Positions 1-31,129 of a DNA stretch of 64,000 nt are shown here, piece after piece; the stretch's first letter is position 1, and each line of letters opens with the position of its first letter. Origin of the DNA: an uncultured Clostridia bacterium (lineage in GTDB: Bacteria; Bacillota; Clostridia; Oscillospirales; Ruminococcaceae); assembly GCA_947628655.1 (NCBI GenBank), contig CANRAS010000002.1:1-64000 (forward strand). The letters run 5' to 3'. The notes beneath the pieces were generated by a model. It was not told the DNA's origin and did no database searches. It was given only the letters and a program-made list of their open reading frames with translations. The position numbers and the translations under genes were made by a program.

Positions 1-402
1 AATAGGGTGGCGTGTTCATCGTTAATAGGGTATCTGGGTGCATCGTTGCATTGTATCAACGATGGAGTGGCAACGGATGAAGCCGTTGCGTGATTGATAC
101 AAGGATTTCTGCCCGTTTTCGTTAGGGCGTTTTACGATACATAGGAATTACCGCCTTTCTCACACCGAGGGGTGTGCAGAGGGCTTATTTTTTTGTCTCT
201 CGGCAGCGAAGTCATCTCTCGTTTAGCGGTGCGGGGTGTGCAGACTGGATGGGCTTGCACACGCACATAACGAAAAGCCTTGTCCCGTAACGATTTGCAG
301 GAGTATCGTTACGAGGGTGTGCAATAACGATAAATGATATGAAACGACAACAAATTGCAGGAAACCTATTGAAAAACGCATCAAAATCTGCTATAATACA
401 GA
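1..402. other. non-coding left end rich in short inverted repeats
   Basis: No gene was recognised here. Perfect inverted repeats are CATCGTTG/CAACGATG (41-48, 57-64), GCAACGG/CCGTTGC (70-76, 83-89), CACACC/GGTGTG (161-166, 171-176), GTGTGCA/TGCACAC (236-242, 256-262) and TATCGTTA/TAACGATA (304-311, 325-332); the last two both have 13-base spacers. The same words occur near the right end (53420-53520). Binding sites for the recombinases, a directionality factor or a repressor are possible roles; this is inference. Confidence 0.6.
369..397 (+). promoter_or_regulatory. sigma-A type promoter of the defence operon
   Basis: TTGAAA (369-374) and TATAAT (392-397) are separated by 17 bp, a near-consensus housekeeping promoter. 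Transcription would begin near 404, about 35 bases before the preferred start of the HTH gene. The TATCGTTA/TAACGATA inverted repeat at 304-332 lies just upstream. Confidence 0.85.
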
Positions 403-438
403 ATGGATTATTTTAAGAGTTCAGTTGGAGGTGCAGAG

Positions 439-633
439 ATGGCAGATGTCGCAAATGATAACTGGATAAATATAGATGAAGCCGCGGAATATCTCGGCGT
501 TAAACCAGGAACCATTCGAGATTGGATTAGGAAAGACAAAGGCGTTCCTGCGCATAAAGTGGGCAAGTTATGGAAATTCAAGCGTTCAGAATTAGATGCT
601 TGGATACAAAGTGGAAAAAGCGCCGAAAACTAA
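439..633 (+). CDS. small helix-turn-helix (excisionase/MerR-like HTH_17) protein
   Basis: 64-residue protein whose body is one winged-helix unit: an N-terminal DEAAEYLGVKPGTIRDWI helix-turn-helix and the VGKLWKFKRSELDAWI wing and helix typical of HTH_17/excisionase-family proteins. An upstream in-frame ATG at 403 exists, but GGAGG at 427-431 sits seven bases before the ATG at 439, so 439 is preferred. It is first in the operon and 24 bases before the methyltransferase. Such proteins often precede restriction-modification genes and may control them; a role in recombination is the alternative. Confidence 0.75.
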   Translation: MADVANDNWINIDEAAEYLGVKPGTIRDWIRKDKGVPAHKVGKLWKFKRSELDAWIQSGKSAEN

Positions 634-657
634 TAACACACGGAAGGTAAACATAGT

Positions 658-2418
658 ATGAGCAAAACGGTAAAATGCCTAAGCCTGTTTGCGGGCATAG
701 GTGGTTTCGAAGTTGGAATGTCCCCTTGTGGTTTCAGGTTTACGAACACATTAGAGTGGGACGAGAATTGTTGCATTACATTGAATGCAAATAAGGAATT
801 GACAGGGGCTTTGGAAGATGAGATTAAGCCCATTGATATTATGAAAATGGAGCCTGCAGATTTTTCAAGCGAGCAGGTGGATTATATTGTTGGCGGTCCC
901 CCTTGCCAGAGCTTTTCTGCTGCAGGAAGACGAGCAGGAGGAGTTGCTGGAACGAGCGATACCCGTGGTACTCTCTTTTGGTATTACTGTCAATATGTAA
1001 AACATTTTCAACCGAAGGCGTTTGTCTTTGAGAACGTCAGAGGTATTCTCTCTTCCAAAAAAGGGGAAGATTTTAAAATAATCTGTGCTTCATTTGAAGA
1101 AGTCGGATATCGACTATATTGGAGAATTTTGAATGCAGCGGACTTTGGTGTTCCACAGCAACGTGAGAGGGTGTTTTTAGTAGGTATAAGGAACGACTTG
1201 AATGTTGCGTTTAAGTTCCCTCGTCCTACGCACGGCCCCGATTCCCCTAACAAGACTCCGTATGTCACTGTAAGGGAATCCATCGCAGACATTACCGATG
1301 AGAACGAGGTCGTTCCTCCGTACGGAGGTAAATATGGGGATCTACTCCCCGATATTCCGGTAGGAGAAAACTATAGATTTTATACGGAAGAAATGGGGCA
1401 TCCAAATCCTCTGTTTGCTTGGCGTTCGAAGTTCTCTAATTTTTTATATAAGGTCGATCCAGATGATATTTGCAAAACGATCATCGCCTATCAGGGAAGA
1501 TATGATGGTCCCTTCCATTGGCATAATAGAAAGTGTACTGTTGAGGAACTAAAAAGGATGCAGGGCTTCCCTGCAGAATACAATATTCCACAGAAATATG
1601 CGGAAGGTGTCAAGCAAGTTGGGAATTCGGTTTGTCCTCCCGTTGCCAAGCAAATCGGCATGGCCTTGCGATACCAAGTTGAAGGTCTGAGCGAATATGA
1701 GGTTCCTTTGCTGGAGCCTGACGAAGTATTGAGCTTCGACAAGATGAAGGGAAAACGTGCGAAAAAAACTCATGAAAAAAAGGTTACAAAGGTTGTAAAT
1801 GATGCCCAGATGAGTATTTTTGACTATATGCAAGAAAAGCCAGAATATGTTGACGAAAAGAAACATCGCACATTTAATGGGCATAAAATTGTGTGGAAAT
1901 TTGTCGATGGTGAACTTTTTGTGAGTATCGACAAATCGAAAGCTGCACCTGTGGCTACTATCGACCTAAACTTCTTTGGCGGAGTTACAACAAACTTGAA
2001 AAGGATAAAAGTGGATGCTTATCGTTCTGATGTACATGATGAGGATTTAACTCTTATGTGGAATGAGATACACAGGGCGATTAGCGAATATACGACTTAT
2101 GATTCACTCATGCCCTTGTATGGACATTTTACAGAGCCATATCCTAAGTTTGTTATTAAGTTTTCATCCGATAGTTCGTGTGAAGCTATACAGTTTCAAA
2201 AAGTAGCTTTGGATGAAAAATACCGTACAAAGATTTTGGCGTTTTCAAAGTTTCCGATTGATGTTGAAGATTATGAAGAATACTTTGCAAGAATGCGCTC
2301 GATTGGTTTCGATGTACGAACGAATCAAACAAACAGAACGGTTCCGTTAGAGCATTTTAGAATTTGCTATCCTTTCACTTTACCGAGTGACTGGAAAGAT
2401 AAAACGGAATGGGAATGA
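658..2418 (+). CDS. DNA (cytosine-5) methyltransferase of a type II R-M system
   Basis: 586 residues. Conserved C5-methyltransferase motifs are in order: motif I LSLFAGIGGFEVG (about 8-20), motif IV GGPPCQSFS with the catalytic Cys at 83, ENV of motif VI near 125, QQRERVFLVG (motif VIII, near 167-176), RMQGFP near 300 and VGNSVCPP of motif X near 320. About 240 residues follow motif X and match nothing I recognise; family members usually end near motif X, so this extension is unusual. It transfers a methyl group from SAM to cytosine and should protect DNA from the nuclease encoded 18 bases downstream. The coding sequence looks more AT-rich than the phage genes, suggesting separate acquisition. 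Confidence 0.93.
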   Translation: MSKTVKCLSLFAGIGGFEVGMSPCGFRFTNTLEWDENCCITLNANKELTGALEDEIKPIDIMKMEPADFSSEQVDYIVGGPPCQSFSAAGRRAGGVAGTSDTRGTLFWYYCQYVKHFQPKAFVFENVRGILSSKKGEDFKIICASFEEVGYRLYWRILNAADFGVPQQRERVFLVGIRNDLNVAFKFPRPTHGPDSPNKTPYVTVRESIADITDENEVVPPYGGKYGDLLPDIPVGENYRFYTEEMGHPNPLFAWRSKFSNFLYKVDPDDICKTIIAYQGRYDGPFHWHNRKCTVEELKRMQGFPAEYNIPQKYAEGVKQVGNSVCPPVAKQIGMALRYQVEGLSEYEVPLLEPDEVLSFDKMKGKRAKKTHEKKVTKVVNDAQMSIFDYMQEKPEYVDEKKHRTFNGHKIVWKFVDGELFVSIDKSKAAPVATIDLNFFGGVTTNLKRIKVDAYRSDVHDEDLTLMWNEIHRAISEYTTYDSLMPLYGHFTEPYPKFVIKFSSDSSCEAIQFQKVALDEKYRTKILAFSKFPIDVEDYEEYFARMRSIGFDVRTNQTNRTVPLEHFRICYPFTLPSDWKDKTEWE

Positions 2419-2436
2419 CGCTTTTGGAGGTATAGT

Positions 2437-3555
2437 ATGGATTCTAATCAGATAAGAAAAGAACTGGATGAGTTGATAGTGGGAACCGTGTCGTATGACC
2501 AGGATGCATTGCCAAAGCGTTTGTTATCATACTTGTCCATGTGGAAGTGGGGAAAGTATGGTTGGGTTTCTCCTGCAAGTTTGATGTATACAGCAGCATG
2601 GCGAAAGTATTATTACCCAGATATTGACTGTTGCAAAATATGGGCATCGGATGAGAATAATAAGCCGATTCCTGGTGGGTACAGTATTCGTTCCGAAGAT
2701 GAGAGCATTAGTATACCTCTTTTAGCAAAGCACGATCTTTGCGAGGGTTTCTGCTCTCCCAATTCGGGAATGCAAGGTAGCCGTGCCATTGAGAAGATGC
2801 GTACACTCAAACGCTTAGACACTGATTTTGATTCCGCACAGAGGACACTTTTTGACCTTAAGCTATTTGCAAATATCATGAATGAAATCAACGATTTGCA
2901 GAGTCCAGAGCTACTGGAGTTGCTGAAGTATTTCATATGCACGGCGAAAGAAATCAAAGCACATAGGGATGAGGTAAATCTTACCCTTAACCAAGAAAGT
3001 GCAGCCTCGTTCGGGGTGTTGGATTTTTTGGCAGAGGTTCACGATCCTGAATTGACGAAGTGTGTTGTTGCGGCTTGTATGCAGGTCATTTTTGATAAGC
3101 ATGGTATATCTATTTCGGGAGTCGATGATTACAAAACCGCCGCTGATGCACGGGCGGGGAAACCTGGGGATTTGACTGTTGAAAAAGACGGGAATCCATT
3201 ACTGGCAATAGAGGTCAAAGATAAGACACAAAAAATTGACTGGAATAATATTGAAAGAGCCAAGAGGATAATCACAGCACATCCTGAGTTGAAGGGCTTT
3301 GTCTTCGTTCTTGAGAGCAGGGATGCCGCTACCAACCATTTGATTAATGAGATGGTCACATCTTCCCAATTAGCCACAGGCGAAGGAAAGATAATATCAA
3401 TCATGTCGCTATTCTCTTTGTATCAGTTGGTTTTACCAATTGAATCAGAGAATGCAATTATTAACATTACAAGTAAGTTCATTACAATGGCTCCGGCGAT
3501 TAAGCCAGAAACGAAGGAGAAATGGTTGGAAAAAATCGTTAATCAACCGCAGTAA
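2437..3555 (+). CDS. type II restriction endonuclease, SacI-like PD-(D/E)XK fold
   Basis: 372 residues. The likely nuclease core is GKPGDLTVE followed by LLAIEVKDKTQ: Asp245, Glu259 and Lys261 fit the D...E-x-K pattern of PD-(D/E)XK enzymes. The AGKPGDL...EVKDK arrangement resembles my recollection of the SacI endonuclease family; the family name is less certain than the fold. It lies 18 bases after the methyltransferase, and its stop TAA overlaps an ATG of the next frame, indicating translational coupling. Cognate cutting enzyme to the methylase is the simplest role; it may also serve as the nuclease of a larger complex with the next two genes. Confidence 0.75.
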   Translation: MDSNQIRKELDELIVGTVSYDQDALPKRLLSYLSMWKWGKYGWVSPASLMYTAAWRKYYYPDIDCCKIWASDENNKPIPGGYSIRSEDESISIPLLAKHDLCEGFCSPNSGMQGSRAIEKMRTLKRLDTDFDSAQRTLFDLKLFANIMNEINDLQSPELLELLKYFICTAKEIKAHRDEVNLTLNQESAASFGVLDFLAEVHDPELTKCVVAACMQVIFDKHGISISGVDDYKTAADARAGKPGDLTVEKDGNPLLAIEVKDKTQKIDWNNIERAKRIITAHPELKGFVFVLESRDAATNHLINEMVTSSQLATGEGKIISIMSLFSLYQLVLPIESENAIINITSKFITMAPAIKPETKEKWLEKIVNQPQ

Positions 3556-3572
3556 TGAGAGGAGGTCGCAGG

Positions 3573-5048
3573 ATGAAGCGTATTTGCTTGGGAACAATGA
3601 TTACGCTTTTATATCAGAGCCGTATGCGCAGTGCTGATAAAATCAAAACTGTATGCGGCGGAATTTTTGCGGCCTTCGGTCTTGACATTGATAATTTCAA
3701 CAAGGAACTACCGAGCCATCTCAAGAGCGGACACGATCCGGCTCCCGGAGACTTAATTGATGCTGCGAGAAATCTGTCCATTGAGGATATTGACAGAGGT
3801 TTCGAGAAGTATGTCCTTCCTCTGATCCACAATGAGAAGCACGAGGCGGTCTTCCGCGCAATCAAGGATATCCTGCGTGATGATACAACTATTTTAGGCA
3901 CAACTGTTGTCGGGAAAATGGCTGGCTTTGAGAAGGATAACATTCTGAACTATGAGTCCTTTGATGAGTCGGCGCTTCTCGCTAATGTCGTTACCTACGC
4001 AATCATAAGCACCGAGAACGATAAACTCGGCGCAAACATCAGAGAAATCGGAACGGGATACATAGACGGATTTGTGGGGACCGGCGAAAACATTTATTTT
4101 ATCAGTCCTCTTGTCGACCAGGACCAGGTTTCCCCGTTAAAGCGGACTCTGAAGGACCCGATGTTCGACCGCATCTTTAAGAAGGCAACGGATATGACGA
4201 TATCCGGCATGAGCAATCCGTCCAAGGCCTGCGTTTTCTACATTGATCCGAACAACTGCAAATTCAGATTCCGTGATTTGAAAGACTTTATCATAAACAA
4301 CATCGGCAGCTATGTTTTTTCACGGGCGCAGATAAAGCGAATAACCGAGATGACAAAAAACAATACCGCTGTGGGATCAAGGGCGATGTTAAAGTTCATG
4401 CAGAAATACGGAGCGGATGCCGGGAATGTTCTCGGTGAAATCCTGCTGTTCATTTTTATGGAGCAGGAACTTGACGCGCCTAAAATCATGAGCAAAATCG
4501 AGCTTGACGAATATAATCGAGGCATTGTCAGCAAGAGCGATGGCATCCATCTCTTGTCGCTTGACCGTTCCGGCCAGCCTTTCCATCAGCTTGTTTTCGG
4601 CGCATCGGATATTGTGGGAGACCTGTCGGCTGCTGTTGACCGGGCTTTCGATAAAATCATAAAGATCGAAGCTCATGGGGATGACGAATTGCGGATGGTG
4701 GAAAGCACTACACAGTGGACGATTTACGATCCTGATGCAACGCAGTATATGGTTGAACTGATGCGTCCTCAAAAGGGCGGCACTTACAAGCCGGACATGG
4801 CATTCGGCGCATTTCTCGGTTATACAATTCAACTTGACAAGCCGGAAGCGGATAGCCAGAAATACAGAACCGCTGTCAAGAATCAGCTTATAAAGGATAT
4901 CGCCGCAGTTCAGTCTCACATCACAGACCTTATTGTGCAAAACGGTTTAAGCGGGTACAGTTTCTATTTCTATGTACTGCCGTTCAATGATGCCCCTAAT
5001 GAAAAAGTCAGTATCGTTAACGAGCTATTGACAGGGGGTGTTGTCTAA
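3573..5048 (+). CDS. hamA: HamA-like protein (DUF1837), Hachiman system
   Basis: 491 residues. An ATG at 3555 overlaps the previous stop, but AGGAGG at 3560-3565 points to the ATG at 3573. The C-terminal half has the HamA/DUF1837 layout: GEILLFIFMEQ (Gly288-Glu289), KSDGIH (Asp323, His326), the hydrophobic strand QLVFGASDIVGDL and helix AAVDRAFDKI. In HamA proteins the strand normally carries Glu-x-Lys of a PD-(D/E)XK nuclease; here Ala344-Ser345-Asp346 occupies that place. The ~250-residue N-terminal region is unrecognised. It directly abuts the helicase gene. The family call is from memory of motifs and neighbour identity. Confidence 0.68.
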   Translation: MKRICLGTMITLLYQSRMRSADKIKTVCGGIFAAFGLDIDNFNKELPSHLKSGHDPAPGDLIDAARNLSIEDIDRGFEKYVLPLIHNEKHEAVFRAIKDILRDDTTILGTTVVGKMAGFEKDNILNYESFDESALLANVVTYAIISTENDKLGANIREIGTGYIDGFVGTGENIYFISPLVDQDQVSPLKRTLKDPMFDRIFKKATDMTISGMSNPSKACVFYIDPNNCKFRFRDLKDFIINNIGSYVFSRAQIKRITEMTKNNTAVGSRAMLKFMQKYGADAGNVLGEILLFIFMEQELDAPKIMSKIELDEYNRGIVSKSDGIHLLSLDRSGQPFHQLVFGASDIVGDLSAAVDRAFDKIIKIEAHGDDELRMVESTTQWTIYDPDATQYMVELMRPQKGGTYKPDMAFGAFLGYTIQLDKPEADSQKYRTAVKNQLIKDIAAVQSHITDLIVQNGLSGYSFYFYVLPFNDAPNEKVSIVNELLTGGVV

Positions 5049-7667
5049 TTGATTCAGATTCCAAGAAACGCCACTCTTGCGGAAGCGTTATATCGTGATA
5101 TAGACAAGGACGCATATCTTCAGGAAATTTACGGGGATTTGCTTTATAACTATTCCATTAAACTATTCGGTTCAGGGCGTAAACCGAGAGAAATTAACAT
5201 CAAGGATGCATTGCGGTTTTCTGACCTGCTGTCTAAATCGGCATATATTCCGACCGCTGATAGGGACAGGCTGTGGGGACAGGAAATAGCTATATTACTG
5301 CGCCTTTTATACCCGCAGAACGAGACAGTGAGATATTATCTTGGTTCATCACTTTCCGCTGTCGGTAATTTTCGCGGGCTTTACTCAAAGGCAGTAGGCG
5401 AATATATCAGTACCGACCTGCTCGATCAGATTTTTTATGAATACGATAAGGACGAACACAAGATTCCTGGGAAGGATGAAGAATACTTTTTTCACGATCA
5501 GATGATTGTCTATCGCGGGATGGATAAGAAGTTCTTCAGCTATTCCGGTCCCACTTCGATGGGAAAATCGTTTGTGGTGCAGACCTATGTGCAGGAGCAG
5601 GTAAAGAACGGCTCTACAGAAAATTACGCAATCCTTGTGCCTACAAAGGCTTTGATAAACGAGGTCAAGAGCAACCTGATAGGCGCATTGCAGGAGGTCT
5701 TGAAAGAGAAAAATTACCGTGTCGTAACCGCCGCCGGGGATTTGGTTTTACAGCAGGATCATCATTTCATTTTTGTGATGACGCCTGAACGCCTGCACCA
5801 TATGATGATTGAACGGGAAAACATCCACATCGATTTTCTCTTTATTGATGAGGCACATAAAATCTCCGCTCGCGGCGGCAGAAGCACATACTATTTCAAG
5901 GTAATGACTCAACTGCGAAAAATGCAGCAGCTTCCTACGATTGTACTGGCTTCTCCAAATATTCCGAATCCGGAAGTATATCTGAGAATTATACCGGGCG
6001 GCGAGTTTGGCGAGATGAACAGGTTGGCATCTCGGTTCGCTCCTGTTTGCCAGTTCAAGTATTACTTGGATATCCCTTCCCGGAAAGGTTACTTCTTTAA
6101 TGACTATACAAAAGAGCGTGAACTGTGCTATACAATCCCAGAGGGAAGCAAGCTAAGTGATATTGTCAGAATCGTTGGAAAGGACGGACAGAGCCTTGTA
6201 TATTGCAGTTCGAGAAGGTCTGTCCTGGAAAACGCAGTAAGATATGCCAGCAACTTCGATCCTAAAAATGACGATAAGCTGAATGCATTGGCCGCGGAAA
6301 TAAAATCGGAAGTGCATGACGATTGCTATCTTGCCGATCTTATTGTGCGTGGCGTTGCTTATCATGTGGGATACCTTCCTGCGAATATCAGACTGCGTAT
6401 AGAGCGCAGCTTTGAAAATGGTGATTTGAGAACCATCTTTTGCACGAGTACATTGATTGAAGGAGTTAATCTTCCTGCGGACAATCTTTTTATTACAAGC
6501 TACAGAAACGGTCCCAGCAATATGGATGAGGTTGAATTCAAGAACCTCATCGGTCGTGTTGGACGTATAAAATATAACCTTTATGGAAATGTAGTCCTCG
6601 TGCGAGAGGATGATAAGCTGAAGGAAGATCAGTATACAAAGCTGTTGAAGTCGGACGTCCCACCACAGGAATTGTCCATAGATATAAAATCCAATGCGAA
6701 ATATATGGATGCGCTTGTCCGCGACCTTGCTGACGGCGATATTGAAATGAGTTCCTGCCATGACGCTGCTACTGAAACCGACTTTGAAGCCTTGCGAAAA
6801 TTCGGCCTTATTTATACGCGAGACTTGGCAACGGGAGATGTTACTCCTGTGACGGAGACTTTTGAAAGATATGTCGATGACAAGCAGAAGAAACGCATCC
6901 TGGACAACTTCCCTGTTGATCGGACAAGCGATGATATTACGCTTTCATATGACCAAGCGGAGAGTCTGCGTGAAGCAATCGCTAACGGACTCGCTTACCC
7001 GGAATTGACTGGCGAGGACGATGAGGTAGACTTTGAAAAACTCGTTGCATTCATGATGGAATTGCGAAGGCTGTTCAAATGGGACATCTACGAGAAACAA
7101 ACCATAGGAAAACCTGGAACGCAGAGACTTGATTCGGTTATCAGATGGTACTCGACCATTCTTCTCCGTTGGATTCGCGGCAACGGTCTGCGTACCCTTG
7201 TGGGGAGTGCCGTGAGATATAAGGAGAACAATCCCGAAACGGGTGTCTGGTCAGGACAGTTTAAGGTAGCGGAACGCTACAATCCGAAGTCAAAATACCA
7301 TAAAAACCTCGTGATTGCTGAATCATTGAGCGTCATTGAAAATGTACTGTTATTCAGCATTTCAAACTATTTCAGAAAGGTCTCTATGGAGTATAAGGCA
7401 TTCCATCAGGTTGACCATTTTGACAATGACTGGTATGAATATGTTGAATACGGAACAACAAACCCGGATACGATATTCCTCCAACAGAACGGCTTTTCAA
7501 GAGAAGCGTCAATATTCATACAAACGCCATCAAACTATAACAAATATGTGACCGAGGTTGATGGCGAGAAGAAAATCAGACGCAGTATTCTCGAATGCGG
7601 TAATATCGGAGTAGAAACCGAAGCACAAGACATACAATTTAACATTCCTGAACTATTCGTGGATTAA
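5049..7667 (+). CDS. hamB: HamB-like superfamily 2 helicase, Hachiman system
   Basis: 872 residues, starting at TTG 5049 right after the HamA-like stop, with an AGGGGGTG ribosome site upstream. Helicase motifs: Walker A GPTSMGKS (167-174), TPER, DEAH (267-270), LASPNIPNP, STLIEGVNLPADN (motif V) and LIGRVGR (motif VI, about 500-506). The long C-terminal part, about 370 residues, is unrecognised. In known Hachiman systems HamB is an ATP-dependent helicase that senses abnormal DNA and controls the HamA nuclease; here it could also work with the restriction enzyme two genes upstream. It is the last gene before a strong terminator. Confidence 0.75.
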   Translation: MIQIPRNATLAEALYRDIDKDAYLQEIYGDLLYNYSIKLFGSGRKPREINIKDALRFSDLLSKSAYIPTADRDRLWGQEIAILLRLLYPQNETVRYYLGSSLSAVGNFRGLYSKAVGEYISTDLLDQIFYEYDKDEHKIPGKDEEYFFHDQMIVYRGMDKKFFSYSGPTSMGKSFVVQTYVQEQVKNGSTENYAILVPTKALINEVKSNLIGALQEVLKEKNYRVVTAAGDLVLQQDHHFIFVMTPERLHHMMIERENIHIDFLFIDEAHKISARGGRSTYYFKVMTQLRKMQQLPTIVLASPNIPNPEVYLRIIPGGEFGEMNRLASRFAPVCQFKYYLDIPSRKGYFFNDYTKERELCYTIPEGSKLSDIVRIVGKDGQSLVYCSSRRSVLENAVRYASNFDPKNDDKLNALAAEIKSEVHDDCYLADLIVRGVAYHVGYLPANIRLRIERSFENGDLRTIFCTSTLIEGVNLPADNLFITSYRNGPSNMDEVEFKNLIGRVGRIKYNLYGNVVLVREDDKLKEDQYTKLLKSDVPPQELSIDIKSNAKYMDALVRDLADGDIEMSSCHDAATETDFEALRKFGLIYTRDLATGDVTPVTETFERYVDDKQKKRILDNFPVDRTSDDITLSYDQAESLREAIANGLAYPELTGEDDEVDFEKLVAFMMELRRLFKWDIYEKQTIGKPGTQRLDSVIRWYSTILLRWIRGNGLRTLVGSAVRYKENNPETGVWSGQFKVAERYNPKSKYHKNLVIAESLSVIENVLLFSISNYFRKVSMEYKAFHQVDHFDNDWYEYVEYGTTNPDTIFLQQNGFSREASIFIQTPSNYNKYVTEVDGEKKIRRSILECGNIGVETEAQDIQFNIPELFVD

Positions 7668-7678
7668 ATCCACCTGAC

Positions 7679-7711
7679 GGCCTCCTGCCATGTGCGGGAG
7701 GTCTTTTTTTA
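7679..7711 (+). terminator. intrinsic terminator of the defence operon
   Basis: CCTCCTGC (7681-7688) pairs with GCGGGAGG (7694-7701) with a five-base loop, followed by a run of T (7704-7710). Located a few bases after the HamB-like stop. Confidence 0.9.
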
Positions 7712-8016: not shown

Positions 8017-8127
8017 GATGGGCGGTGACAGATTAACCAATCAGCCCGCCCATCCCCTTCGGGGGAAAACTCCAAATCAAATCTCTTAGTCCGAATAGCG
8101 CTATAAGGACGGAGGGATGCATAAGAG
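8017..8127 (+). promoter_or_regulatory. candidate structured RNA leader
   Basis: Non-coding stretch with nested complementarity: GATGGGCGG (8017-8025) with CCGCCCATC (8046-8054), a CCCC-TTCG-GGGG hairpin (8054-8065), and CTCTTA-GTCC (8083-8092) with GGAC (8107-8110) and TAAGAG (8122-8127). A terminator follows at 8207. The architecture suggests a cis-regulatory leader or small RNA ahead of the early phage genes; no known family was recognised. Confidence 0.4.
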
Positions 8128-8206
8128 TTCGGAACGCAGCGATAACGGCTGTGTTTGGAACGAAGATGCTCCCACCGTAGTTTCGTGCGCCTTTTTTCGG
8201 CTATCG

Positions 8207-8240
8207 GAGCCTGTGGTCATCTTCAACCGCAGGCTCTTTT
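8207..8240 (+). terminator. intrinsic terminator or attenuator before the early phage genes
   Basis: GAGCCTGTGGT (8207-8217) pairs with ACCGCAGGCTC (8226-8236) with one G-U pair, followed by TTTT. It ends about 40 bases before the ATG at 8279, so it either ends an upstream small RNA or attenuates the following operon. Confidence 0.7.
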
Positions 8241-8278
8241 GTGTCCCTCCGTACCGCTCGGACGGAAAGGACACTGCA

Positions 8279-8893
8279 ATGAAGAACAACGATTCAAAGA
8301 AACGCAAGAGCGGGTTTAATCCCAACCGTACCTGTTATCTCACGGCGGACGGCAAGTATTACTGCTACGAACGCTGGGATGATGACGCAAAGTGTGTGGT
8401 TACGCAGAGACTTGAGGTCGGCAAAGACCTGTCGCTCGAACTGACCATCATGCTTGATGAGTCCGATCACGACATGGATCTGCAGGACCGCTATGAGAAC
8501 GAACTGCGCGATCCTCTGTTTGATGCCAAGGTCAACAGCTACAAGGCCGATCCCGACAACGAGGATGCGGTCGATCCCTGGGACACGCTTGCCGACAAGA
8601 GTGGCAGCCCGGAAGATGCGATGTTTGCCGAGCCGGAGCCGGAGAATCCCCAGGTAGCGCAGGTGCGTCGCGTTATTGATGAGGAATGCACCGAGTCACA
8701 GCAGGACTTCTTCTTCGAGCATTTCGGCGAGGGTACGCAGCTTGAGGAGATGCGCCAGGCTGAAGCCGAGCAGACGGGCAAGCTGCCTTCCTCCGCAGCG
8801 ATGACGAACCGCAAGAACAAGATTATCGACAAGGTGGCTAAGTCTTTCGGGGTCGAGCGTGTGAAACGCCACAAGTACCCGAAGAAGGACTGA
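8279..8893 (+). CDS. phage sigma-70-like / HTH protein
   Basis: 204 residues from ATG 8279, chosen because a GGAAAGG site lies eight bases upstream and longer in-frame starts would be read through the terminator hairpin. The N-terminal half is acidic and includes a YLTADGKYYCYERWDDD segment. The C-terminal ~70 residues (ECTESQQDFFFEHFGEG... to SFGVERVKRHK) resemble a degenerate sigma region 4 helix-turn-helix, as in phage proteins annotated sigma-like. A role in early phage transcription is inferred from position at the head of the replication module. Confidence 0.6.
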   Translation: MKNNDSKKRKSGFNPNRTCYLTADGKYYCYERWDDDAKCVVTQRLEVGKDLSLELTIMLDESDHDMDLQDRYENELRDPLFDAKVNSYKADPDNEDAVDPWDTLADKSGSPEDAMFAEPEPENPQVAQVRRVIDEECTESQQDFFFEHFGEGTQLEEMRQAEAEQTGKLPSSAAMTNRKNKIIDKVAKSFGVERVKRHKYPKKD

Positions 8894-8950
8894 GCCGTGA
8901 GCGGCTGCAGATACGGCGGTCGGAGTCCTCCCTGGCCGCACCTCTTCGGA

Positions 8951-8977
8951 GGGTTGAATTTCCCGGTAGTGAGTGAG
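8951..8977 (+). promoter_or_regulatory. repeated leader motif, copy 1
   Basis: GGGTTGAATT followed by TCC, then CGGTAGTGAGTGAGG. Near-identical motifs stand at 10684 and 45027, each shortly before a small phage gene. This copy ends 57 bases before the ATG at 9035. Such constancy in non-coding leaders suggests an RNA- or DNA-binding site. Confidence 0.5.
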
Positions 8978-9034
8978 GAAGGAAATACATCCATCCTCCG
9001 CAGCAATGCAGATCAGGAACAGGAGGACGAACCT

Positions 9035-9238
9035 ATGAGATTAAAACACAAAGTACGAATCAATATCGCCGACAAAAGCGGCAAAAAGCAGGAAGTCCTG
9101 CAGAGCGAACACAGGAGCATTCCGAAAAGGCTGCTCACCTTTCTCTTCGGAGAATTTTGCGAGGTTCTCGTGCTGACGCCGGGTGAAACCGTGCAGGGAA
9201 TCGAGATCAAGGAAATGCGGGGTGACGGCAATGAGTGA
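9035..9238 (+). CDS. 67-residue phage hypothetical protein
   Basis: Starts at ATG 9035 with AGGAGG upstream. The sequence has a basic N-terminus (MRLKHKVRINIADKSGKK), a central SIPKRLLTFLFGEFCEVLVLTPGE segment and an acidic-basic C-terminus. It overlaps the helicase gene by eight bases, so the two are translationally coupled. No family recognised; a small accessory to the helicase or a regulator is possible. Confidence 0.7.
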   Translation: MRLKHKVRINIADKSGKKQEVLQSEHRSIPKRLLTFLFGEFCEVLVLTPGETVQGIEIKEMRGDGNE

Positions 9239-10670
9239 AAACATCGAACTGATGATGCCTATCAAGGCTGCTCCGTATGACCACCAGAAAAAGGCGTTTG
9301 CCTTTGCCTGCGACAAGTTCGGCGTATTTGACGAGCGCCTTAAAAGTCGAGGCACGGCTCTTCTGATGGAAATGGGTACCGGCAAAACAATCGTGAGCAT
9401 TGCCGTGGCGGGATGTATGTACCAATACGGCAAGGTCAACCGTGTGCTGGTGGTCGCGCCGCTTTCCATCCTTGGCGTCTGGCAGGAGGAATTCGAGAAG
9501 TTCGCTGACTTCCCATATTCGCTGACCATCCTTAAAGGTACATCGGCAAAGAAAAAAGAGCAGCTGACCAAGCTGCCGGACGAGGGTTTGCAGGTCGTGG
9601 TCGTGAATTACGAATCGGCGTGGCGGCTCGAAAAGGAACTGCTGGCTTACAACGCCGACCTGGTGATTGCGGACGAGGCGCACAAGCTGAAGGAGAACCG
9701 TACCTCCCAGAGCAAGGGGATGCACCACATCGGAGATAAGGCAAAATACAAGCTACTCCTCACGGGTACGGTCATCACGAATCGCGAACTGGATGTGTTC
9801 TCGCAGTACCGATTCCTTAATCCGCAGATATTCGGAACATCGTTCTATGCCTTCCGCAACCAGTATTTTGACATGGGCGGCTATGGCAACCACACGCCGA
9901 TTTTCCGTAAATGGATGACCGATGATTTTCTGCGGAAGCTCCACTCCGTGGCGTTCCGCGTGACAAAAGCGGAGTGCCTTGACCTTCCGGCGATCACTGA
10001 GGAAGTCCGTACCGTGGACTTGGAGAAGGACGCCATAAAACTGTATGACAGCATCGAGGACGAAAGCTACGCCGAACTGGACGAGTCGGAAGTCACCACG
10101 GCAAACATCCTCACAAGGCTCCTGCGCCTTTCGCAGATCACGGGCGGTCATCTTACCGATGACGATGGTGTGGTCAATACCGTGAGCCGTGCCAAGTTGG
10201 ATGCGCTTTCCGACATTATTGACTCAGCTATGGCCGAGGATAAGAAGCTCGTCATCATGGCTCGTTTCGTGCCCGAACTGGACGATATCCAGGAGCTTCT
10301 TGAAAAGAAAAAAATCGGCTATGCCGTGGTTCGCGGCGGCGTGAAGGACCGAGACAATGAAATCCACCGTTTTCAGTATGACGATAAGTGCCGTGTCTTT
10401 GTGGGACAGATTGCGGCTGCCGGACTCGGCATCACGCTCACGGCGGCATCCACAATGGTCTTTTATTCCCTCGACTATAGCATGAGCAATTTCGAGCAGG
10501 CGAAGGCTCGTATCCACAGAGCGGGACAGAAAGAGAACTGCCATTACATCTACCTCGTGTGCAGGGGTACGGTCGACCGCAAGGTCTTATACGCGCTCCG
10601 GCAGAAAATGAACCTCGCAAAAATACTCGTGGATGATTACCGCAAGGGCAGGAATCCCTTTAAGAACTGA
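9231..10670 (+). CDS. SNF2/DEAD-family phage helicase
   Basis: 479 residues from ATG 9231; the open frame extends further upstream but no ribosome site supports that. Motifs: Walker A MEMGTGKT (about 47-54), VVAPLSILGVW (Ia), ADEAHKLK (147-154), LLTGT (III), then the C-terminal helicase lobe with AAGLGITLTAAS and QAKARIHRAGQ (motif VI). The RIHRAGQ signature is typical of SNF2-type translocases in siphophage replication modules. It likely remodels DNA during phage replication or recombination. It overlaps the previous gene. Confidence 0.9.
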   Translation: MSENIELMMPIKAAPYDHQKKAFAFACDKFGVFDERLKSRGTALLMEMGTGKTIVSIAVAGCMYQYGKVNRVLVVAPLSILGVWQEEFEKFADFPYSLTILKGTSAKKKEQLTKLPDEGLQVVVVNYESAWRLEKELLAYNADLVIADEAHKLKENRTSQSKGMHHIGDKAKYKLLLTGTVITNRELDVFSQYRFLNPQIFGTSFYAFRNQYFDMGGYGNHTPIFRKWMTDDFLRKLHSVAFRVTKAECLDLPAITEEVRTVDLEKDAIKLYDSIEDESYAELDESEVTTANILTRLLRLSQITGGHLTDDDGVVNTVSRAKLDALSDIIDSAMAEDKKLVIMARFVPELDDIQELLEKKKIGYAVVRGGVKDRDNEIHRFQYDDKCRVFVGQIAAAGLGITLTAASTMVFYSLDYSMSNFEQAKARIHRAGQKENCHYIYLVCRGTVDRKVLYALRQKMNLAKILVDDYRKGRNPFKN

Positions 10671-10683
10671 CCTTTCACACAGG

Positions 10684-10709
10684 GGGTTGAATTCCTCGGT
10701 AGTAAGTGA
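10684..10709 (+). promoter_or_regulatory. repeated leader motif, copy 2, inside a hairpin covering the ribosome site
   Basis: GGGTTGAATTCCTCGGTAGT and AAGTGA here match the motifs at 8951 and 45027. Flanking CCTTTCAC and GTGAAAGG form a perfect 8-bp stem whose 3' arm overlaps the AAAGGAGG ribosome site of the gene at 10726, so this copy could control translation. Confidence 0.5.
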
Positions 10710-10725
10710 AAGGAGGTAGTCACCG

Positions 10726-11136
10726 ATGGAGAACACAAAAATCTTTGAAATGGCTGACAGGCTCAAGACTCTGCAGGAACAGAAGAAAGACCTCGAAGCG
10801 CAGACCAAGGCTCTGGGTGCGGAGATAGCCGAATTGGACGAGCAGCTCTCTGATGCCATGTCAGAAGCCGAACTTGACCGCTTCTCCCGTAACGGCAGCA
10901 CGTTCTATCTGAAGAGCAGATTGTTCGCGTCTCCGGCATCCGGCCGCAAGGACGAGATGATGCAGGCTCTGAAAGAAAACGGATACGGCAGCCTGGTCGT
11001 GGAGACGGTCAACGCAAACACACTCGCATCCTTCATCAAGGAGCAGCGGGAAGCCACGGGCGAGGACGTCCCGACATGGCTCGGCGATACCGTCAGTACT
11101 TACGAAAAAGTGTCGGTCGGCATCCGCAAGTCGTAG
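10726..11136 (+). CDS. phage hypothetical protein with N-terminal coiled coil
   Basis: 136 residues, AAAGGAGG upstream of ATG 10726. Residues about 5-48 (MADRLKTLQEQKKDLEAQTK and on to LDEQLSDAMSE) form an uninterrupted heptad-like coiled coil. The rest contains STFYLKSRLFASP, KDEMMQALKENGYGSLV and a FIKEQ segment that could be a small DNA- or protein-binding domain. It lies between the helicase and a Cys-containing protein in the replication module. Comparable proteins accompany polymerase genes in related prophages, but the function is unknown to me. Confidence 0.75.
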   Translation: MENTKIFEMADRLKTLQEQKKDLEAQTKALGAEIAELDEQLSDAMSEAELDRFSRNGSTFYLKSRLFASPASGRKDEMMQALKENGYGSLVVETVNANTLASFIKEQREATGEDVPTWLGDTVSTYEKVSVGIRKS

Positions 11137-11202
11137 GAACACCGATTCACTGCACCAATGCAAAAACCACAACTTATTTCATTTCATAGGAGGACATTGA
11201 TC

Positions 11203-11952
11203 ATGTCAGATAAGAAGAACACCGAAATCGCAGTGAACGAGGGTTTCGCTGCTCTTGCAAACAGAGACGTACTGAACGAGGCAATGGCGGACGATTGCCA
11301 GGGGCTTGAGTTTTCCTTTGACCGCGTGAAGCTGCCAGCAGGCGGCGGCACGGCTTTCGAGATTCCCTCCGCTGAGAGCGATGAGTCCGAGATGGCGAAG
11401 GACATCACCGGCGTTATCGTCTACAACCATCCGGCTTATGCCTACTACCACGACAAGTACACGGGCGGGAACAATCCTCCCGACTGCGGCAGCTTTGACG
11501 GCGTGACGGGCATCGGCACTCCCGGCGGGAACTGCCAGAACTGCCCGTATAACAAGTTCGGCAGCGGCGAGGGTCAGAGCAAACTGTGCAAAAACAAGCG
11601 TATGCTTTACATCCTGCGCGAGGGAGAACTGTTCCCCATCACGCTTTCCCTGCCGACCGGGTCGCTCAAGTCCTTCACGAACTATGTGAAGAGCCAGCTT
11701 TCCCGCGGGCGCAAGCTGAACCAGGTGGTAACGAAGATCACGCTGAAGAAGGCCACCAACGCATCCGGCATCGCATTCTCCCAGGCGGTATTTTCGTTTG
11801 AGCGTATGCTGACCGCCGATGAGCGCAGCGCCGTGGCGGGCGTGTCGGAAACGGTCAAGGTATATGCCGCGAACCTGACTCCGGCATCTCTCATTGACGA
11901 TGAGCCGCTGGTCGATCCTGAAACGGGAGAAATCATCGAACCTTTGAAGTAA
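11203..11952 (+). CDS. phage protein with Cys cluster, possible ssDNA-binding or replication accessory
   Basis: 249 residues from ATG 11203 (TAGGAGG nine bases upstream; the longer frame from 11158 lacks a site). A central GNCQNCPYNKFGSGEG segment and a further LCKNK provide three Cys that may bind a metal, followed by LREGELFPITLSLPTGSL and a basic VKSQLSRGRKLNQ stretch. The C-terminus is acidic (PLVDPETGEIIEPL), as in many single-stranded DNA-binding proteins. Its place immediately before the DNA polymerase supports a replication role; the exact function is not established. Confidence 0.65.
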   Translation: MSDKKNTEIAVNEGFAALANRDVLNEAMADDCQGLEFSFDRVKLPAGGGTAFEIPSAESDESEMAKDITGVIVYNHPAYAYYHDKYTGGNNPPDCGSFDGVTGIGTPGGNCQNCPYNKFGSGEGQSKLCKNKRMLYILREGELFPITLSLPTGSLKSFTNYVKSQLSRGRKLNQVVTKITLKKATNASGIAFSQAVFSFERMLTADERSAVAGVSETVKVYAANLTPASLIDDEPLVDPETGEIIEPLK

Positions 11953-12015
11953 AGCACACGAAAGCCCGGAGGGGTACAACGCTCCTTCGGGTATTTCCCA
12001 TAGGAGTGATTACGC

Positions 12016-13941
12016 ATGATTACAGAATATAACTGTGTGACCACGGTGGACGGGATAAAGGATTACATCGGCGGCAGCGGTATTGTCGCTTTTGACTTTG
12101 AGACTGCTCCCGATGATCCGTACCGCGAGGAGGACAAGGCGGCTCTCGATCCCGCGAGGGCGCATATTGTCGGATGCTCCTTCTCTGTCAAGGAAGGTAC
12201 GGGCATATATGTTCCGATTGCCCACCGTGTCGGCACCAACATAGACAAGGACGCCTTTTTTGCATTTCTGACGGCGTTCCTCATGGATAAAAGCACCATA
12301 AAGATTGCCCACAACATCGCCTTTGAATCCTCAATGGCGTATGCAAGGGGCATCGTGATACAGGCTCCCGTGTACGACACGATCTGTGCGTCACAGATGA
12401 GCCTTAAAAGCATATACGAATTCCGCAAGCTGAACGAGAGCGGGTTGAAAAGGCTGGCGGAGGAACTGTTCGGAGAACCGCTCCCTTCATTTTCAAACGT
12501 TACGGACGGAAAGCACTTTGATGAACTGGACGCGCAGGATGAGGAAACCGTCCGCTACGGTTCCGCTGACTCCGATTTTGCCCTTCGGCTCTATCACAAG
12601 TTCAATGACTGGTTCGACCGCTACCTTCCGAAACACAGGTACATCGTGGAGGAGATTGAAAGTCCGACCGCCGTGTACCTCGGCATCATGAAAACAAACG
12701 GCATCCCGGTCAACCTTCCGCTCATGCAGGAACGAAAGGCAGAAGCGGAAAACGAGATGGAGCGCATTCGCAGGGAGATAGAGTTCATCATCGGCGATGT
12801 GAACATCGGCGCGAACTGCTCTACGCAGGCGTTCAAGAATTATCTGTATAAAGACCTGGGGCTGCCCATTTTGAAGACCACGGAAACCAACCGCGAGGCG
12901 GCTGACGATATGACCATGACGCTCCTCAAGGAGTGGTGCGATGAGAACCGTCCGGAACTGTCGGAGCTTTTTACGCTCGTGCAGGAGTACCGCAAGTGGG
13001 GCAAGATCAAGTCCACCTATATCGATGGGTACTTGAAATACTTAAATCCCGTGACGGGCTGCATCCATCCGGAACTGTTCGCCCTTTCAACGGATACGGG
13101 CAGGATGAACTGCCGTAATCCGAACGCACAGAATATGCCGAGAAAGACCAACGATCCCATCGGCGTCCGGAACTTCATCAAAGCGCCGGAGGGATGCCTT
13201 ATCCTCTCGCTTGACTTTTCGCAGATAGAACTGCGCGTGGGCGCATTCTACTGCCGCGATGAGAGGATGCTCGACACCTACCGCAAAAACGGCGATATCC
13301 ACGCCGCCACGACCAGCGTCATTTTCGGCGTGAGCTACGAGGAAGCCCAGGACAAGCATTCGGAAAATTACAAGGAACACAGGACGATTGCCAAAAATGT
13401 GAACTTTGGCACTTTCTATGGGCTGTTCCCGCGAGGGCTACAGAAGACGCTGAAGTTCAAGGCGGGGGTTGAAAAATCCGTGAGTGAGTGTGAGGAGATA
13501 CTTTTCAACCTCAAGCACGGATACAAGGGTCTGACCGCGTGGCAGGAAGAGACGAAGGCAGAAGCCGCAAGGCGTATGTATTCGGAAACCTGGCTCGGAC
13601 GGCGCAGGTACCTTCCCGGCATCACCTCGGATAATTGGGGGCAGAAGTCGTTTGCGGAGCGGTGTTCGCTGAACACACCTATCCAGGGGACGGCGGCGGA
13701 CATCCTGAAACTCGCTATTACGAGGATACTTGCCGGACTGCCGGAGCGGGAATGGCTCAAGCCCATCCTTCAGATACACGATGAACTGACTTTCATTATC
13801 CCGGAGGACAGGCTGTCGGAAGCGGTGGCTTTTATCCGTGCCTGCATGGAAGAAAAGCCCTTCCCGGAGTTTGACCTTCCGCTGATTGCGGAAGCGTCTG
13901 CGGGGCCGACCTTTGGAATGATGGAAGAACTGGAGGATTGA
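12016..13941 (+). CDS. family A DNA polymerase with 3'-5' exonuclease domain
   Basis: 641 residues, shorter than bacterial Pol I because the 5' nuclease domain is absent. The exonuclease begins with VAFDFETAPDD (about 24-34) and continues through IAHNIAFE and YGSADSDFALRLYH. Polymerase motifs: motif A LSLDFSQIELRVGAFY (about 394-409), motif B TIAKNVNFGTFYG and motif C QIHDELTF (about 587-594). ATG 12016 has TAGGAGTGA upstream. It is the phage replicative polymerase and sits beside the primase-helicase. Confidence 0.95.
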   Translation: MITEYNCVTTVDGIKDYIGGSGIVAFDFETAPDDPYREEDKAALDPARAHIVGCSFSVKEGTGIYVPIAHRVGTNIDKDAFFAFLTAFLMDKSTIKIAHNIAFESSMAYARGIVIQAPVYDTICASQMSLKSIYEFRKLNESGLKRLAEELFGEPLPSFSNVTDGKHFDELDAQDEETVRYGSADSDFALRLYHKFNDWFDRYLPKHRYIVEEIESPTAVYLGIMKTNGIPVNLPLMQERKAEAENEMERIRREIEFIIGDVNIGANCSTQAFKNYLYKDLGLPILKTTETNREAADDMTMTLLKEWCDENRPELSELFTLVQEYRKWGKIKSTYIDGYLKYLNPVTGCIHPELFALSTDTGRMNCRNPNAQNMPRKTNDPIGVRNFIKAPEGCLILSLDFSQIELRVGAFYCRDERMLDTYRKNGDIHAATTSVIFGVSYEEAQDKHSENYKEHRTIAKNVNFGTFYGLFPRGLQKTLKFKAGVEKSVSECEEILFNLKHGYKGLTAWQEETKAEAARRMYSETWLGRRRYLPGITSDNWGQKSFAERCSLNTPIQGTAADILKLAITRILAGLPEREWLKPILQIHDELTFIIPEDRLSEAVAFIRACMEEKPFPEFDLPLIAEASAGPTFGMMEELED

Positions 13942-13943
13942 CT

Positions 13944-14363
13944 ATGTACAAAAACAGCGAAGGCTACGCCGATCCGACCGCAGGGTCGGCGATGAGCCAA
14001 GTAATGAAGGAATACCGGCAGAAGCAGAAAAAACGCTATGCCGACAAGAACCGCAGGAAGATATATGTGGCTTCCAGATACGCGGGCGATGTGGATACGA
14101 ATGTCGCGGCGGCAATCACATACTGCCGCCGTGTGATAGACGAGGGCTATATGCCGGTGGCGAGCCATCTTCTGTATCCGCAGATACTTAACGATAACGA
14201 TCCCAATGAACGGGATCTTGGCCTTCTGTTCGGACTTGCGCTCCTTCGGATGTGCGATGAGGTGTGGGTGTTCGGCGCTATATCGCCGGGTGTCGCACAG
14301 GAGATCGAGGAGGCAAAACGGCTGAAGAAGCAGATCAGATATTTTGAGGAGGTGGGCGCATGA
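13944..14363 (+). CDS. DUF4406-like / nucleoside deoxyribosyltransferase-like phage protein
   Basis: 139 residues from ATG 13944 (GGAGG seven bases upstream). The N-terminal ~35 residues are basic; the remainder fits a small Rossmann-like fold: IYVASRYAGDVDTN, YMPVASHLLYPQIL, MCDEVWVFGAISPGVAQEIEEAK and QIRYF, as in DUF4406 and nucleoside 2-deoxyribosyltransferase-like proteins. It follows the polymerase by two bases and overlaps the next gene by four (ATGA). Nucleotide metabolism or signalling is plausible; substrate unknown. Confidence 0.75.
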   Translation: MYKNSEGYADPTAGSAMSQVMKEYRQKQKKRYADKNRRKIYVASRYAGDVDTNVAAAITYCRRVIDEGYMPVASHLLYPQILNDNDPNERDLGLLFGLALLRMCDEVWVFGAISPGVAQEIEEAKRLKKQIRYFEEVGA

Positions 14364-16849: not shown

Positions 16850-16881
16850 TGAATCCCGGCGGCCTTTCCACGAGCATCTTT

Positions 16882-17041
16882 GGAACACGAGAACACGTAG
16901 GAACACCAAAATCCTATCTCCCCATATATAATACACATATTTTTATATACCCTTAATTTTCACCACAAAAAATATATGAAAATAGGATTTCTCGTGTTCC
17001 ATGTGTTCCAAGCGTTGAAAATACGGAGGTTTTAGGAACAG
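16882..17041. repeat. ~160 bp palindromic element, copy 1 (candidate origin or control site)
   Basis: Begins GGAACACGAGAACAC, contains TATATAATACACAT in an AT-rich centre and ends with CGTGTTCC..GTGTTCC, then GGAACAG. The arms are inverted (GGAACAC versus GTGTTCC; ATCCTAT versus ATAGGAT). A second copy stands at 44806-44963 in the same orientation. Iteron-like GGAACAC boxes beside AT-rich DNA and directly after the primase-helicase gene fit a replication origin; this is inference. Confidence 0.7.
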
Positions 17042-17326
17042 ATGAAAGAAGCGGACATTGTAAAAGCGATCATGAAGTACCTTAAGACCGTGCCGGGGTG
17101 CTTCTGTTGGAAAGAACACGGCGGTATGTACGGGACGGCGGGCATTCCCGATATCATTGCCTGCATTGGAGGACACTTCTTCGGATTTGAGGTAAAGACC
17201 GATAGCGGCAAGCCTACGAAGCTCCAGGAAGCGACAATCCGTAAAATCCTCGCGGCCGGCGGCACTGCCTTGGTGGTGCGCTCGGTGGATGAGGTGCGAA
17301 CCGTGGTAAACGGCTCCCTGCACTGA
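17042..17326 (+). CDS. VRR-NUC domain nuclease
   Basis: 94 residues, the length of stand-alone phage VRR-NUC proteins. Motifs: MKEADIVKAIMKYL, GGMYGTAGIPDIIACIGG (metal-binding Asp) and FFGFEVKTDSGKPTKLQ (E-x-K), completing a PD-(D/E)XK-type site; VVRSVDEV closes the domain. Such enzymes are structure-specific DNA nucleases linked to phage replication and recombination. It begins exactly at the end of the palindromic element, with GGAGG about 14 bases upstream. Confidence 0.9.
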   Translation: MKEADIVKAIMKYLKTVPGCFCWKEHGGMYGTAGIPDIIACIGGHFFGFEVKTDSGKPTKLQEATIRKILAAGGTALVVRSVDEVRTVVNGSLH

Positions 17327-17386
17327 TACAAAGATACATCGCTCCATTGCAACGATGCCTGATTCCGACAAAGGGAGGTATCGCAT

Positions 17387-18024: not shown

Positions 18025-18028
18025 AAGT

Positions 18029-18079: not shown

Positions 18080-18098
18080 AGCAAAGTAGAGTAAGACG

Positions 18099-18130: not shown

Positions 18131-18158
18131 CTTATGTCCGGAAAGCGAGGTGATTTGT

Positions 18159-18524: not shown

Positions 18525-18534
18525 CCGGGAGGGG

Positions 18535-18618: not shown

Positions 18619-18646
18619 CCGGTGAATGCAGATCGGAGGTGAGAAT

Positions 18647-31127: not shown

Positions 31128-31129
31128 CT

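What the first reader, a model, noticed from the sequence alone, without database searches (positions are those of the whole stretch)
403..7711. Composite defence operon: HTH, C5 methyltransferase, SacI-like endonuclease, HamA-like and HamB helicase in one transcription unit
The sequence shows one near-consensus promoter, five tightly packed genes (gaps of 24 and 18 bases, a TAATG overlap, and an abutting TTG start) and one terminator. A complete restriction-modification pair and a Hachiman-like pair are therefore coexpressed. Known Hachiman loci consist of hamA and hamB alone; known type II systems lack a helicase. The inference is that the four proteins may be one system, with methylation marking self and the helicase sensing or loading the nuclease.
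Basis: partly seen in the sequence, partly recalled or inferred. Interest (0 to 1): 0.8.

Follow-up and report, generated by a model that had tools for sequence, protein, structure and literature searches.

The report
Restriction system wired to nuclease-dead Hachiman
A prophage in a gut bacterium carries one operon that joins a DNA-cutting restriction system to a variant of the Hachiman anti-phage system whose own nuclease site is lost, and related phages keep the Hachiman part while swapping the restriction part, which suggests that the two layers of immunity work together.

Summary
The operon is real: promoter, HTH, C5 methyltransferase, weak SacI-family endonuclease, HamA, HamB, terminator, at the left end of a prophage. 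Two starts were misplaced (HTH probably 439, HamA 3573). It is not a one-off. In its HamB clade (53 loci after 95% de-replication), 43 of the 45 with visible flanks have R-M genes within about 8.5 kb, 42 of them on the same strand; of 12 loci from more distant Hachiman clades none has an adjoining same-strand R-M methyltransferase. R-M class changes at least 10 times on the HamB tree (types I, II including LlaJI, III). DNA homology to close relatives covers the HTH gene and restarts at the hamA ribosome-binding site: a swappable R-M slot. HamA has lost the described nuclease motif: 0 of 64 clade sequences keep ExK, 12 of 12 outside do. It carries instead an N-terminal domain shared with ABC-3C proteins; loci without it have a separate ~290-aa gene (31 and 20 of 51, never both). 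Best reading, untested: a DNA-damage-sensing guardian or second layer to R-M. Main evidence against: at the same phage site R-M also occurs with other partners, so adjacency is partly a property of the site.

The parts
369..397 (+). sigma-70-like promoter, TTGAAA-17-TATAAT, extended -10
   Evidence: 11 of 12 matches; a similar promoter is aligned at the same place in L011 and L010
439..633 (+). gene 1, small HTH_17 / excisionase-type DNA-binding protein (ORF listed from 403)
   Evidence: PF12728 60.1 bits; GGAGG at 427 before ATG 439; homologous DNA at the same place in L011, L010, L008
634..3550 (+). R-M cassette slot: the stretch replaced by unrelated R-M genes in close relatives
   Evidence: DNA homology of window 1-8500 to L010 covers 454-623, 3551-7788 and 8139-8274 only; to L011 300-623 and 3560-7667; to L008 457-627 and 3558-8055
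658..2418 (+). gene 2, C5-cytosine DNA methyltransferase (586 aa)
   Evidence: PF00145 250 bits; motifs FAGIGG, PPCQSFS, ENV, QQRER, GNS present (motif names recalled)
2437..3555 (+). gene 3, SacI-family-like restriction endonuclease (372 aa)
   Evidence: PF09566 21.3 bits, cut-off 19.3; a PD-(D/E)xK-like stretch ending in AIEVK, from residue 257 on (motif recalled)
3560..3565 (+). AGGAGG ribosome-binding site of hamA, right edge of the slot
   Evidence: sequence; homology to relatives restarts at 3551-3560
3573..5048 (+). gene 4, HamA long form (491 aa; ORF listed from 3555)
   Evidence: PF08878 130 bits; PDLC00164 714 bits from residue 7 of the listed ORF
3573..4112 (+). N-terminal helical domain of HamA (about 180 aa), shared with ABC-3C CTD11 proteins
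   Evidence: hhalign probability 99.9, E about 1e-32 to L003/L103/L118; AF2 pLDDT 95.1; no PDB fold match found
4539..4610 (+). degenerate nuclease site of HamA: D323 kept, E->A344 and K->D346
   Evidence: 0 of 64 clade sequences have E and K at these columns, 12 of 12 outside do
5049..7667 (+). gene 5, HamB, Ski2-like DEAH helicase (872 aa, TTG start)
   Evidence: PDLC00190 1059 bits; GPTSMGKS, DEAH, GRVGR present; PDB 9wh1_B E 4e-64
7679..7711 (+). intrinsic terminator
   Evidence: 10-pair stem 7679-7703 followed by a T run
8117..49072 (+). prophage body at whose left end the operon lies (replication, packaging, tail, lysis, two serine recombinases)
   Evidence: PHROGs on ten proteins, nine matched: helicase, DNA polymerase, primase, terminase, portal, tape measure, endolysin, two integrases; genes of other kinds upstream in L009

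Best explanation
A prophage-borne, two-layer anti-phage operon. Layer 1 is an ordinary R-M system in an exchangeable slot (here a C5 methyltransferase and a SacI-like endonuclease). Layer 2 is a variant Hachiman pair: HamB, expected to sense damaged or free-ended DNA as in canonical Hachiman, and a HamA that has lost its nuclease site and instead docks another module on HamB, the N-terminal domain (or, in sister loci, a separate ~290-aa protein). Proposed working, inferred: R-M cleavage of incoming DNA, or damage that follows when a phage blocks R-M, produces DNA states that HamB recognises; HamB then releases or clusters HamA, and the N-domain starts an abortive or dormancy response that limits phages which survive restriction. 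Coupling would run through DNA state and co-expression, not through a dedicated contact with the R-M enzymes. Shown: the operon, the recurrent linkage, the R-M exchange, the loss of ExK and the N-domain/p290 alternation. Not shown: any defence activity, what the N-domain does, or that the layers depend on each other.
For: Linkage: 43 of 45 informative clade clusters (2 without, 8 more not judged) vs 0 of 12 loci of more distant clades. The seven clade loci taken from the genome search alone: 6 of 7 vs 0 of 12, Fisher p 0.0003, kinship ignored. R-M lies upstream in 27 and downstream in 16, at least 4 changes of order on the tree, yet 42 of 43 are on the same strand; in 18 of 23 upstream loci measured the gap from the preceding ORF to hamA is under 60 nt. 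At least 10 changes of R-M class over 44 labelled rows; close pairs with unrelated R-M: window copy/L010 86.8%, L018/L019 87.5%, L048/L051 81.7% HamB identity. Sharp slot edges. ExK lost in 64 of 64. N-domain or p290, never both or neither: 31 and 20 of 51. The six genomic ABC-3C loci with the same N-domain that were examined also carry R-M-like genes (L144-L149). HamB damage sensing: PMC12278908 (passages and one section). Dead-HamA fusions acting through another effector: PMC12799240 (passages). R-M guardians such as PrrC and PARIS as a concept: PMC12707154 (passages).
Against: At the same phage site (anchor gene of L020), 15 of 15 HamAB-free loci with at least 5 kb upstream also carry R-M-type genes, with other partners: the site itself favours R-M, so adjacency to HamAB is partly a property of the phage lineage. 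Two clade loci lack R-M in view (L136; L024, where an IS element sits by a truncated HamA). Sister L143 keeps ExK and still has R-M genes 3-4 kb away, so loss of ExK and linkage are not strictly tied. Control L138 has a GmrSD-type (modification-dependent) restriction gene near HamB, so 'no restriction gene at all' would be wrong for it. L137 has both p290 and a TIR domain on HamA, and L067 lacks p290 as well as the N-domain, so these may not be the killing effector. The N-domain shows no catalytic motif that I recognise and no PDB fold match. Most loci are viral contigs found by short peptide patterns; the control set is small and comes from genomes.
Confidence: 0.45

Rival explanations
1. Two independent defence cargoes in one prophage cargo slot. 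They share promoter and terminator because the phage has a single place for cargo, and each works without the other.
For: R-M occurs at the same site with ABC-3C or a ~640-aa protein instead of HamAB. Prophage hotspots, many of them with more than one system, are known (PMC9122126, passages). Unrelated R-Ms are all accepted.
Against: 0 of 12 distant Hachiman loci are linked to an R-M methyltransferase on the same strand. Same-strand packing survives changes of order. Among 45 informative clade clusters only 2 lack R-M.
Confidence: 0.33
2. One physical machine: HamB and dead HamA recruit or load the R-M endonuclease, which serves as the missing nuclease.
For: HamA has lost its own nuclease site in 64 of 64 sequences while an R-M system is nearly always adjacent.
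Against: Partners are unrelated (SacI-like, LlaJI/McrC, MvaI/BcnI, DpnII, type I HsdR, type III Res), also beside HamAB pairs 80-88% identical, which a dedicated interface would hardly tolerate.
Confidence: 0.08
3. Prophage-stabilising or regulatory unit: hamAB responds to R-M-made breaks in cells that lose the prophage or in which methylation lags, acting as an addiction or damage checkpoint and not against phages.
For: Prophage location, a small HTH regulator at the head of many of these operons, and a DNA-damage trigger known for Hachiman.
Against: Broad anti-phage activity is documented for Hachiman (PMC12278908). Type I systems, which are frequent here, are not the typical addiction modules (recalled).
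Confidence: 0.14

Closest known systems
Hachiman (HamA-HamB), E. coli, PDB 8VX9/8VXY and 8ZUE
   Different: ExK (E138/K140 in ECOR31) lost; extra N-terminal domain of ~180 aa; R-M neighbours in nearly every informative locus
HamMAB, protease-HamA fusion Hachiman (PMC12799240, passages)
   Same: a HamA that has lost D-GEXK and carries an N-terminal fusion
   Different: no trypsin domain found in this HamA and no MBL nuclease among the five operon proteins; N-domain of ABC-3C type; R-M cassette instead
PDB 9WH1/9WHK/9WHU HamA-HamB
   Same: closest solved HamB by sequence (E 4e-64); its 528-aa HamA matches the profile over the C-terminal part and shows no ExK in the aligned stretch
   Different: its N-terminal part was not matched by the profile; what that part is was not looked up
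R-M guardians PrrC/EcoPrrI and PARIS (PMC12707154, passages)
   Same: a second, suicide-type layer that watches over R-M
   Different: those use an anticodon nuclease or an anti-restriction sensor; here a DNA-integrity helicase pair attached to many R-M types
ABC-3C systems (Pfam CTD6, CTD11, MC2)
   Same: CTD11 proteins share the N-domain with HamA, occur at the same phage site, and are R-M linked in L144-L149
   Different: SMC-like ATPase and CTD protein instead of HamA/HamB
P2/P4 prophage defence hotspots (PMC9122126, passages)
   Same: defence cargo between conserved phage genes
   Different: here one R-M slot plus one partner slot with defined edges, in another phage group

Membership tests
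Hachiman | HamA (DUF1837) and HamB (Ski2-like helicase) adjacent | tested here: met
   PF08878 130 bits; PDLC00164 714 bits; PDLC00190 1059 bits
Hachiman | HamA D-ExK nuclease motif | tested here: not met
   A344/D346 in the window; 0 of 64 clade sequences. So it is Hachiman-related, not a canonical nuclease Hachiman
Hachiman | HamB helicase motifs intact | tested here: met
   GPTSMGKS, DEAH and GRVGR present
Hachiman | defence activity triggered by DNA damage | not testable with these tools
   needs cells
Type II R-M | methyltransferase with catalytic motifs | tested here: met
   PF00145 250 bits, motifs
Type II R-M | cognate endonuclease | tested here: inconclusive
   RE_SacI 2 bits over cut-off, partial; PD-(D/E)xK-like stretch; no solved relative by sequence
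HamMAB (nuclease-protease Hachiman) | trypsin-like domain on HamA with an MBL nuclease gene | tested here: not met
   only HamA matched in the HamA protein, and none of the other four operon proteins matched an MBL family
R-M guardian (PrrC/PARIS-like) | activated when R-M is inhibited | not testable with these tools
   inference from linkage only
ABC-3C | ABC ATPase, middle component and CTD protein | tested here: not met
   none of the five operon proteins matched ABC-3C families; only the N-domain is shared

The most novel reading that the evidence does not exclude
Clostridia-type temperate phages carry a two-slot immune locus: any R-M system (I, II, LlaJI-type, III) in one slot and an interchangeable sensor-effector partner in the other (dead-HamA Hachiman, ABC-3C, or a ~640-aa M78/HTH-like protein), with one shared N-domain linking HamA and ABC-3C proteins to R-M. 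Partner and R-M would act as one coupled system in which restriction feeds a DNA-state sensor that triggers a non-nuclease abortive response.
Probability: 0.35. Interest if true: 0.85.

Novelty: new variant of a known kind. Interest (0 to 1): 0.68.

Why it matters
Hachiman has mostly been studied as a stand-alone, damage-activated nuclease. A clade that has lost that nuclease yet nearly always travels with restriction enzymes would make R-M part of a sensing-and-killing circuit, turn the idea of R-M guardians into a modular and portable design, and give a conserved N-terminal domain (shared by HamA and ABC-3C proteins) a testable role. It also predicts that annotators who list 'R-M' and 'Hachiman' separately in such prophages are splitting one locus.

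Tried and rejected

Rows dropped before counts: five loci (L033, L038, L068, L081, L082) were left out to meet the 50-record limit. From the HamB tree: near-identical copies (95%), L013/L017, L062 and L078 (no HamB of 600 aa or more), L014 (N-domain only), L081/L082 (no HamA in view), other fetches of the same contigs. The motif count of 64 includes near-identical copies and L013, L062 and L078. L155 is in the neighbour control but not in the motif count. L139 was not scored for p290 (contig edge). L067, a near-copy of L065, showed no p290 ORF and was removed by de-replication, so the 51-row count does not contain this exception. R-M labels were entered by hand; L054, L076, L135, L137 and L141 were confirmed by Pfam afterwards.

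Weaker positives among the 43: L027, L139, L063, L066 (R-M genes cut by the contig end), L036 (endonuclease only tested), L052 (about 2 kb away beyond other ORFs), L055 (convergent strand). Controls were scanned with local HMMs built from clade loci plus simple motifs, and Pfam on the doubtful ones, so an unusual methyltransferase could be missed. The HamB tree is a quick one with long outgroup branches that it flags itself.
Full report
WHAT IS THERE. The window is the first 64 kb of contig C2 of a 2.09 Mb draft genome in 34 contigs. One operon runs from a promoter at 369-397 to a terminator at 7679-7711: a small HTH_17 protein, a C5 methyltransferase, a weak SacI-family endonuclease, HamA and HamB. 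Two starts need correction: HamA at 3573 (behind AGGAGG, where the PADLOC model and the homology to relatives begin) and the HTH probably at 439. Downstream lies a prophage: of ten proteins tested, nine match phage families (helicase, polymerase, primase, terminase, portal, tape measure, endolysin, two integrases). A near-identical copy in another MAG, L009 (record title: uncultured Ruminiclostridium sp. isolate Lapin-002), shows genes of other kinds upstream, so the operon sits at the left edge of the prophage.

IT IS NOT UNIQUE. Searches with HamA, HamB and the HamA families gave 67 HamB proteins of 600 aa or more, 57 after removal of 95% copies. Apart from four outgroup rows (L138, L143, L150, L151) they form one group of 53 (SH-aLRT 96, quick tree). 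The neighbours were read ORF by ORF and typed with Pfam or local HMMs. Of the 53, 43 have R-M genes within about 8.5 kb, 2 do not (L136; L024, next to an IS element), and 8 cannot be judged because the contig ends. Seven of the 43 are weaker cases, listed under Tried and rejected; 42 of 43 are on the strand of hamAB. In 12 loci of more distant Hachiman clades (L138, L150-L160) none has an R-M methyltransferase next to it on the same strand; L151 has an HsdM 4.7 kb away on the other strand, the suspicious neighbours of L152 and L160 are a helicase and a hydrolase, and L138 has a GmrSD-type restriction gene. The sister locus L143, in neither count, has R-M genes 3-4 kb away. The seven clade loci from the genome search alone: 6 of 7 against 0 of 12 (relatedness ignored).

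THE R-M PART IS SWAPPED. Between the window and L010 (HamB about 87% identical) DNA homology covers the HTH gene (454-623) and 3551-7788, and nothing between; with L011 and L008 it is much the same. The stretch between holds a C5 MTase and a SacI-like gene here; in L010 two C5 MTases, an McrB-like and a LlaJI gene and Vsr; in L011 and L008 LlaJI-type cassettes of other sizes. L018 and L019 (87.5%) have type III and type I; L048 and L051 (81.7%) type I and type III. Over 44 labelled rows of the tree (L143 included) the R-M class changes at least 10 times and its side (27 up-, 16 downstream of hamAB) at least 4 times. In 18 of 23 upstream loci measured the gap from the preceding same-strand ORF to hamA is under 60 nt; in the other five it is 153-373 nt. 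Downstream gaps are more varied.

THE PHAGE SITE. With a phage gene next to hamAB of L020 as anchor, 34 loci were found. Leaving out those with HamAB, 15 have at least 5 kb upstream (13 if two near-identical pairs are counted once), and all 15 have at least one R-M-type gene by local HMM or motif (for L110 and L114/L115 the methyltransferase rests on a motif only; some are R subunits only, and strands vary). In HamAB-free loci with less room R-M was not seen. Six of the 15 have ABC-3C genes (Pfam for L114 and L118, the rest by likeness) and seven a ~640-aa protein (L113: weak Peptidase_M78 and HTH matches below cut-off; the others by size and likeness only); two have neither. The six genomic ABC-3C loci with the HamA-type N-domain that were examined also carry MTase-like and ResIII-like genes (L144-L149; Pfam for L144 only; the MTase of L145 is in pieces); six weaker or shorter loci of this kind (L003-L005, L093-L095) were not examined for R-M. 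This cuts both ways: it shows a wider two-slot pattern, and it shows that R-M at this site does not need HamAB.

HOW IT PROBABLY WORKS. HamB is expected to sense damaged DNA (PMC12278908). In protease-HamA fusions the dead HamA passes the signal to another effector (PMC12799240, passages). By analogy, HamB and dead HamA here would pass a DNA-damage signal, which R-M cleavage or R-M failure would supply, to the N-domain or p290. Because unrelated R-Ms are accepted, the coupling is more likely through DNA state and co-expression than through contact between the proteins. All of this last step is inference.

WHAT IS NEW. Ten full-text searches of the held open-access library listed no paper whose title or abstract start describes R-M linkage of a Hachiman clade; of the two Hachiman papers in which I looked up passages, one has no 'operon' or 'neighbor' and the other no 'restriction' in the main text. 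Supplements and papers not held were not seen. Degenerate HamA fusions, R-M guardians and prophage hotspots are each known; the combination, the slot and the N-domain/p290 alternation appear new.

Noticed in passing
window 55295-63794: Repeat-rich stretch and a minus-strand gene set that by eye look like a type I-C CRISPR-Cas locus (cas2, cas1, cas4, cas7-like and others) right of the prophage; not run through any family library.
   Followed up: no
window 19179-23413: Inside the prophage, an ORF that by eye looks like S-adenosylmethionine synthetase (MetK) directly before two methyltransferase-like ORFs; L056 19958-21130 has a similar MetK-like ORF. A phage supply of SAM for methylation would be worth a look.
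   Followed up: no
L137 8933-10417: HamA with a TIR_2 domain (44 bits) in place of the N-domain, ExK lost, in a type I R-M operon that also has p290.
   Followed up: partly
L144-L149: ABC-3C-like loci whose N-domain is the HamA type, each with methyltransferase-like and ResIII-like genes beside it, near phage replication genes.
   Followed up: partly
L113, L116, L124, L128-L130, L110: A ~640-aa protein (L113: weak Peptidase_M78 and HTH matches) between R-M genes and the anchor phage gene; a possible third kind of R-M partner.
   Followed up: partly
L010 9522-9980: A Vsr mismatch endonuclease gene (113 bits) between the LlaJI-type nuclease and hamA.
   Followed up: no
L060 14777-17316 and L076 16122-16964: DpnII endonuclease genes (365 and 372 bits) downstream of hamAB, in L060 with a D12 methyltransferase: a further R-M type in the series.
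   Followed up: partly
L138 13738-15552: A GmrSD-type restriction gene (94 bits) downstream of a canonical, ExK-bearing HamAB pair.
   Followed up: no
window 169-244: The 12-mer GGGGTGTGCAGA occurs twice, 64 bases apart, upstream of the operon promoter; meaning unknown.
   Followed up: no
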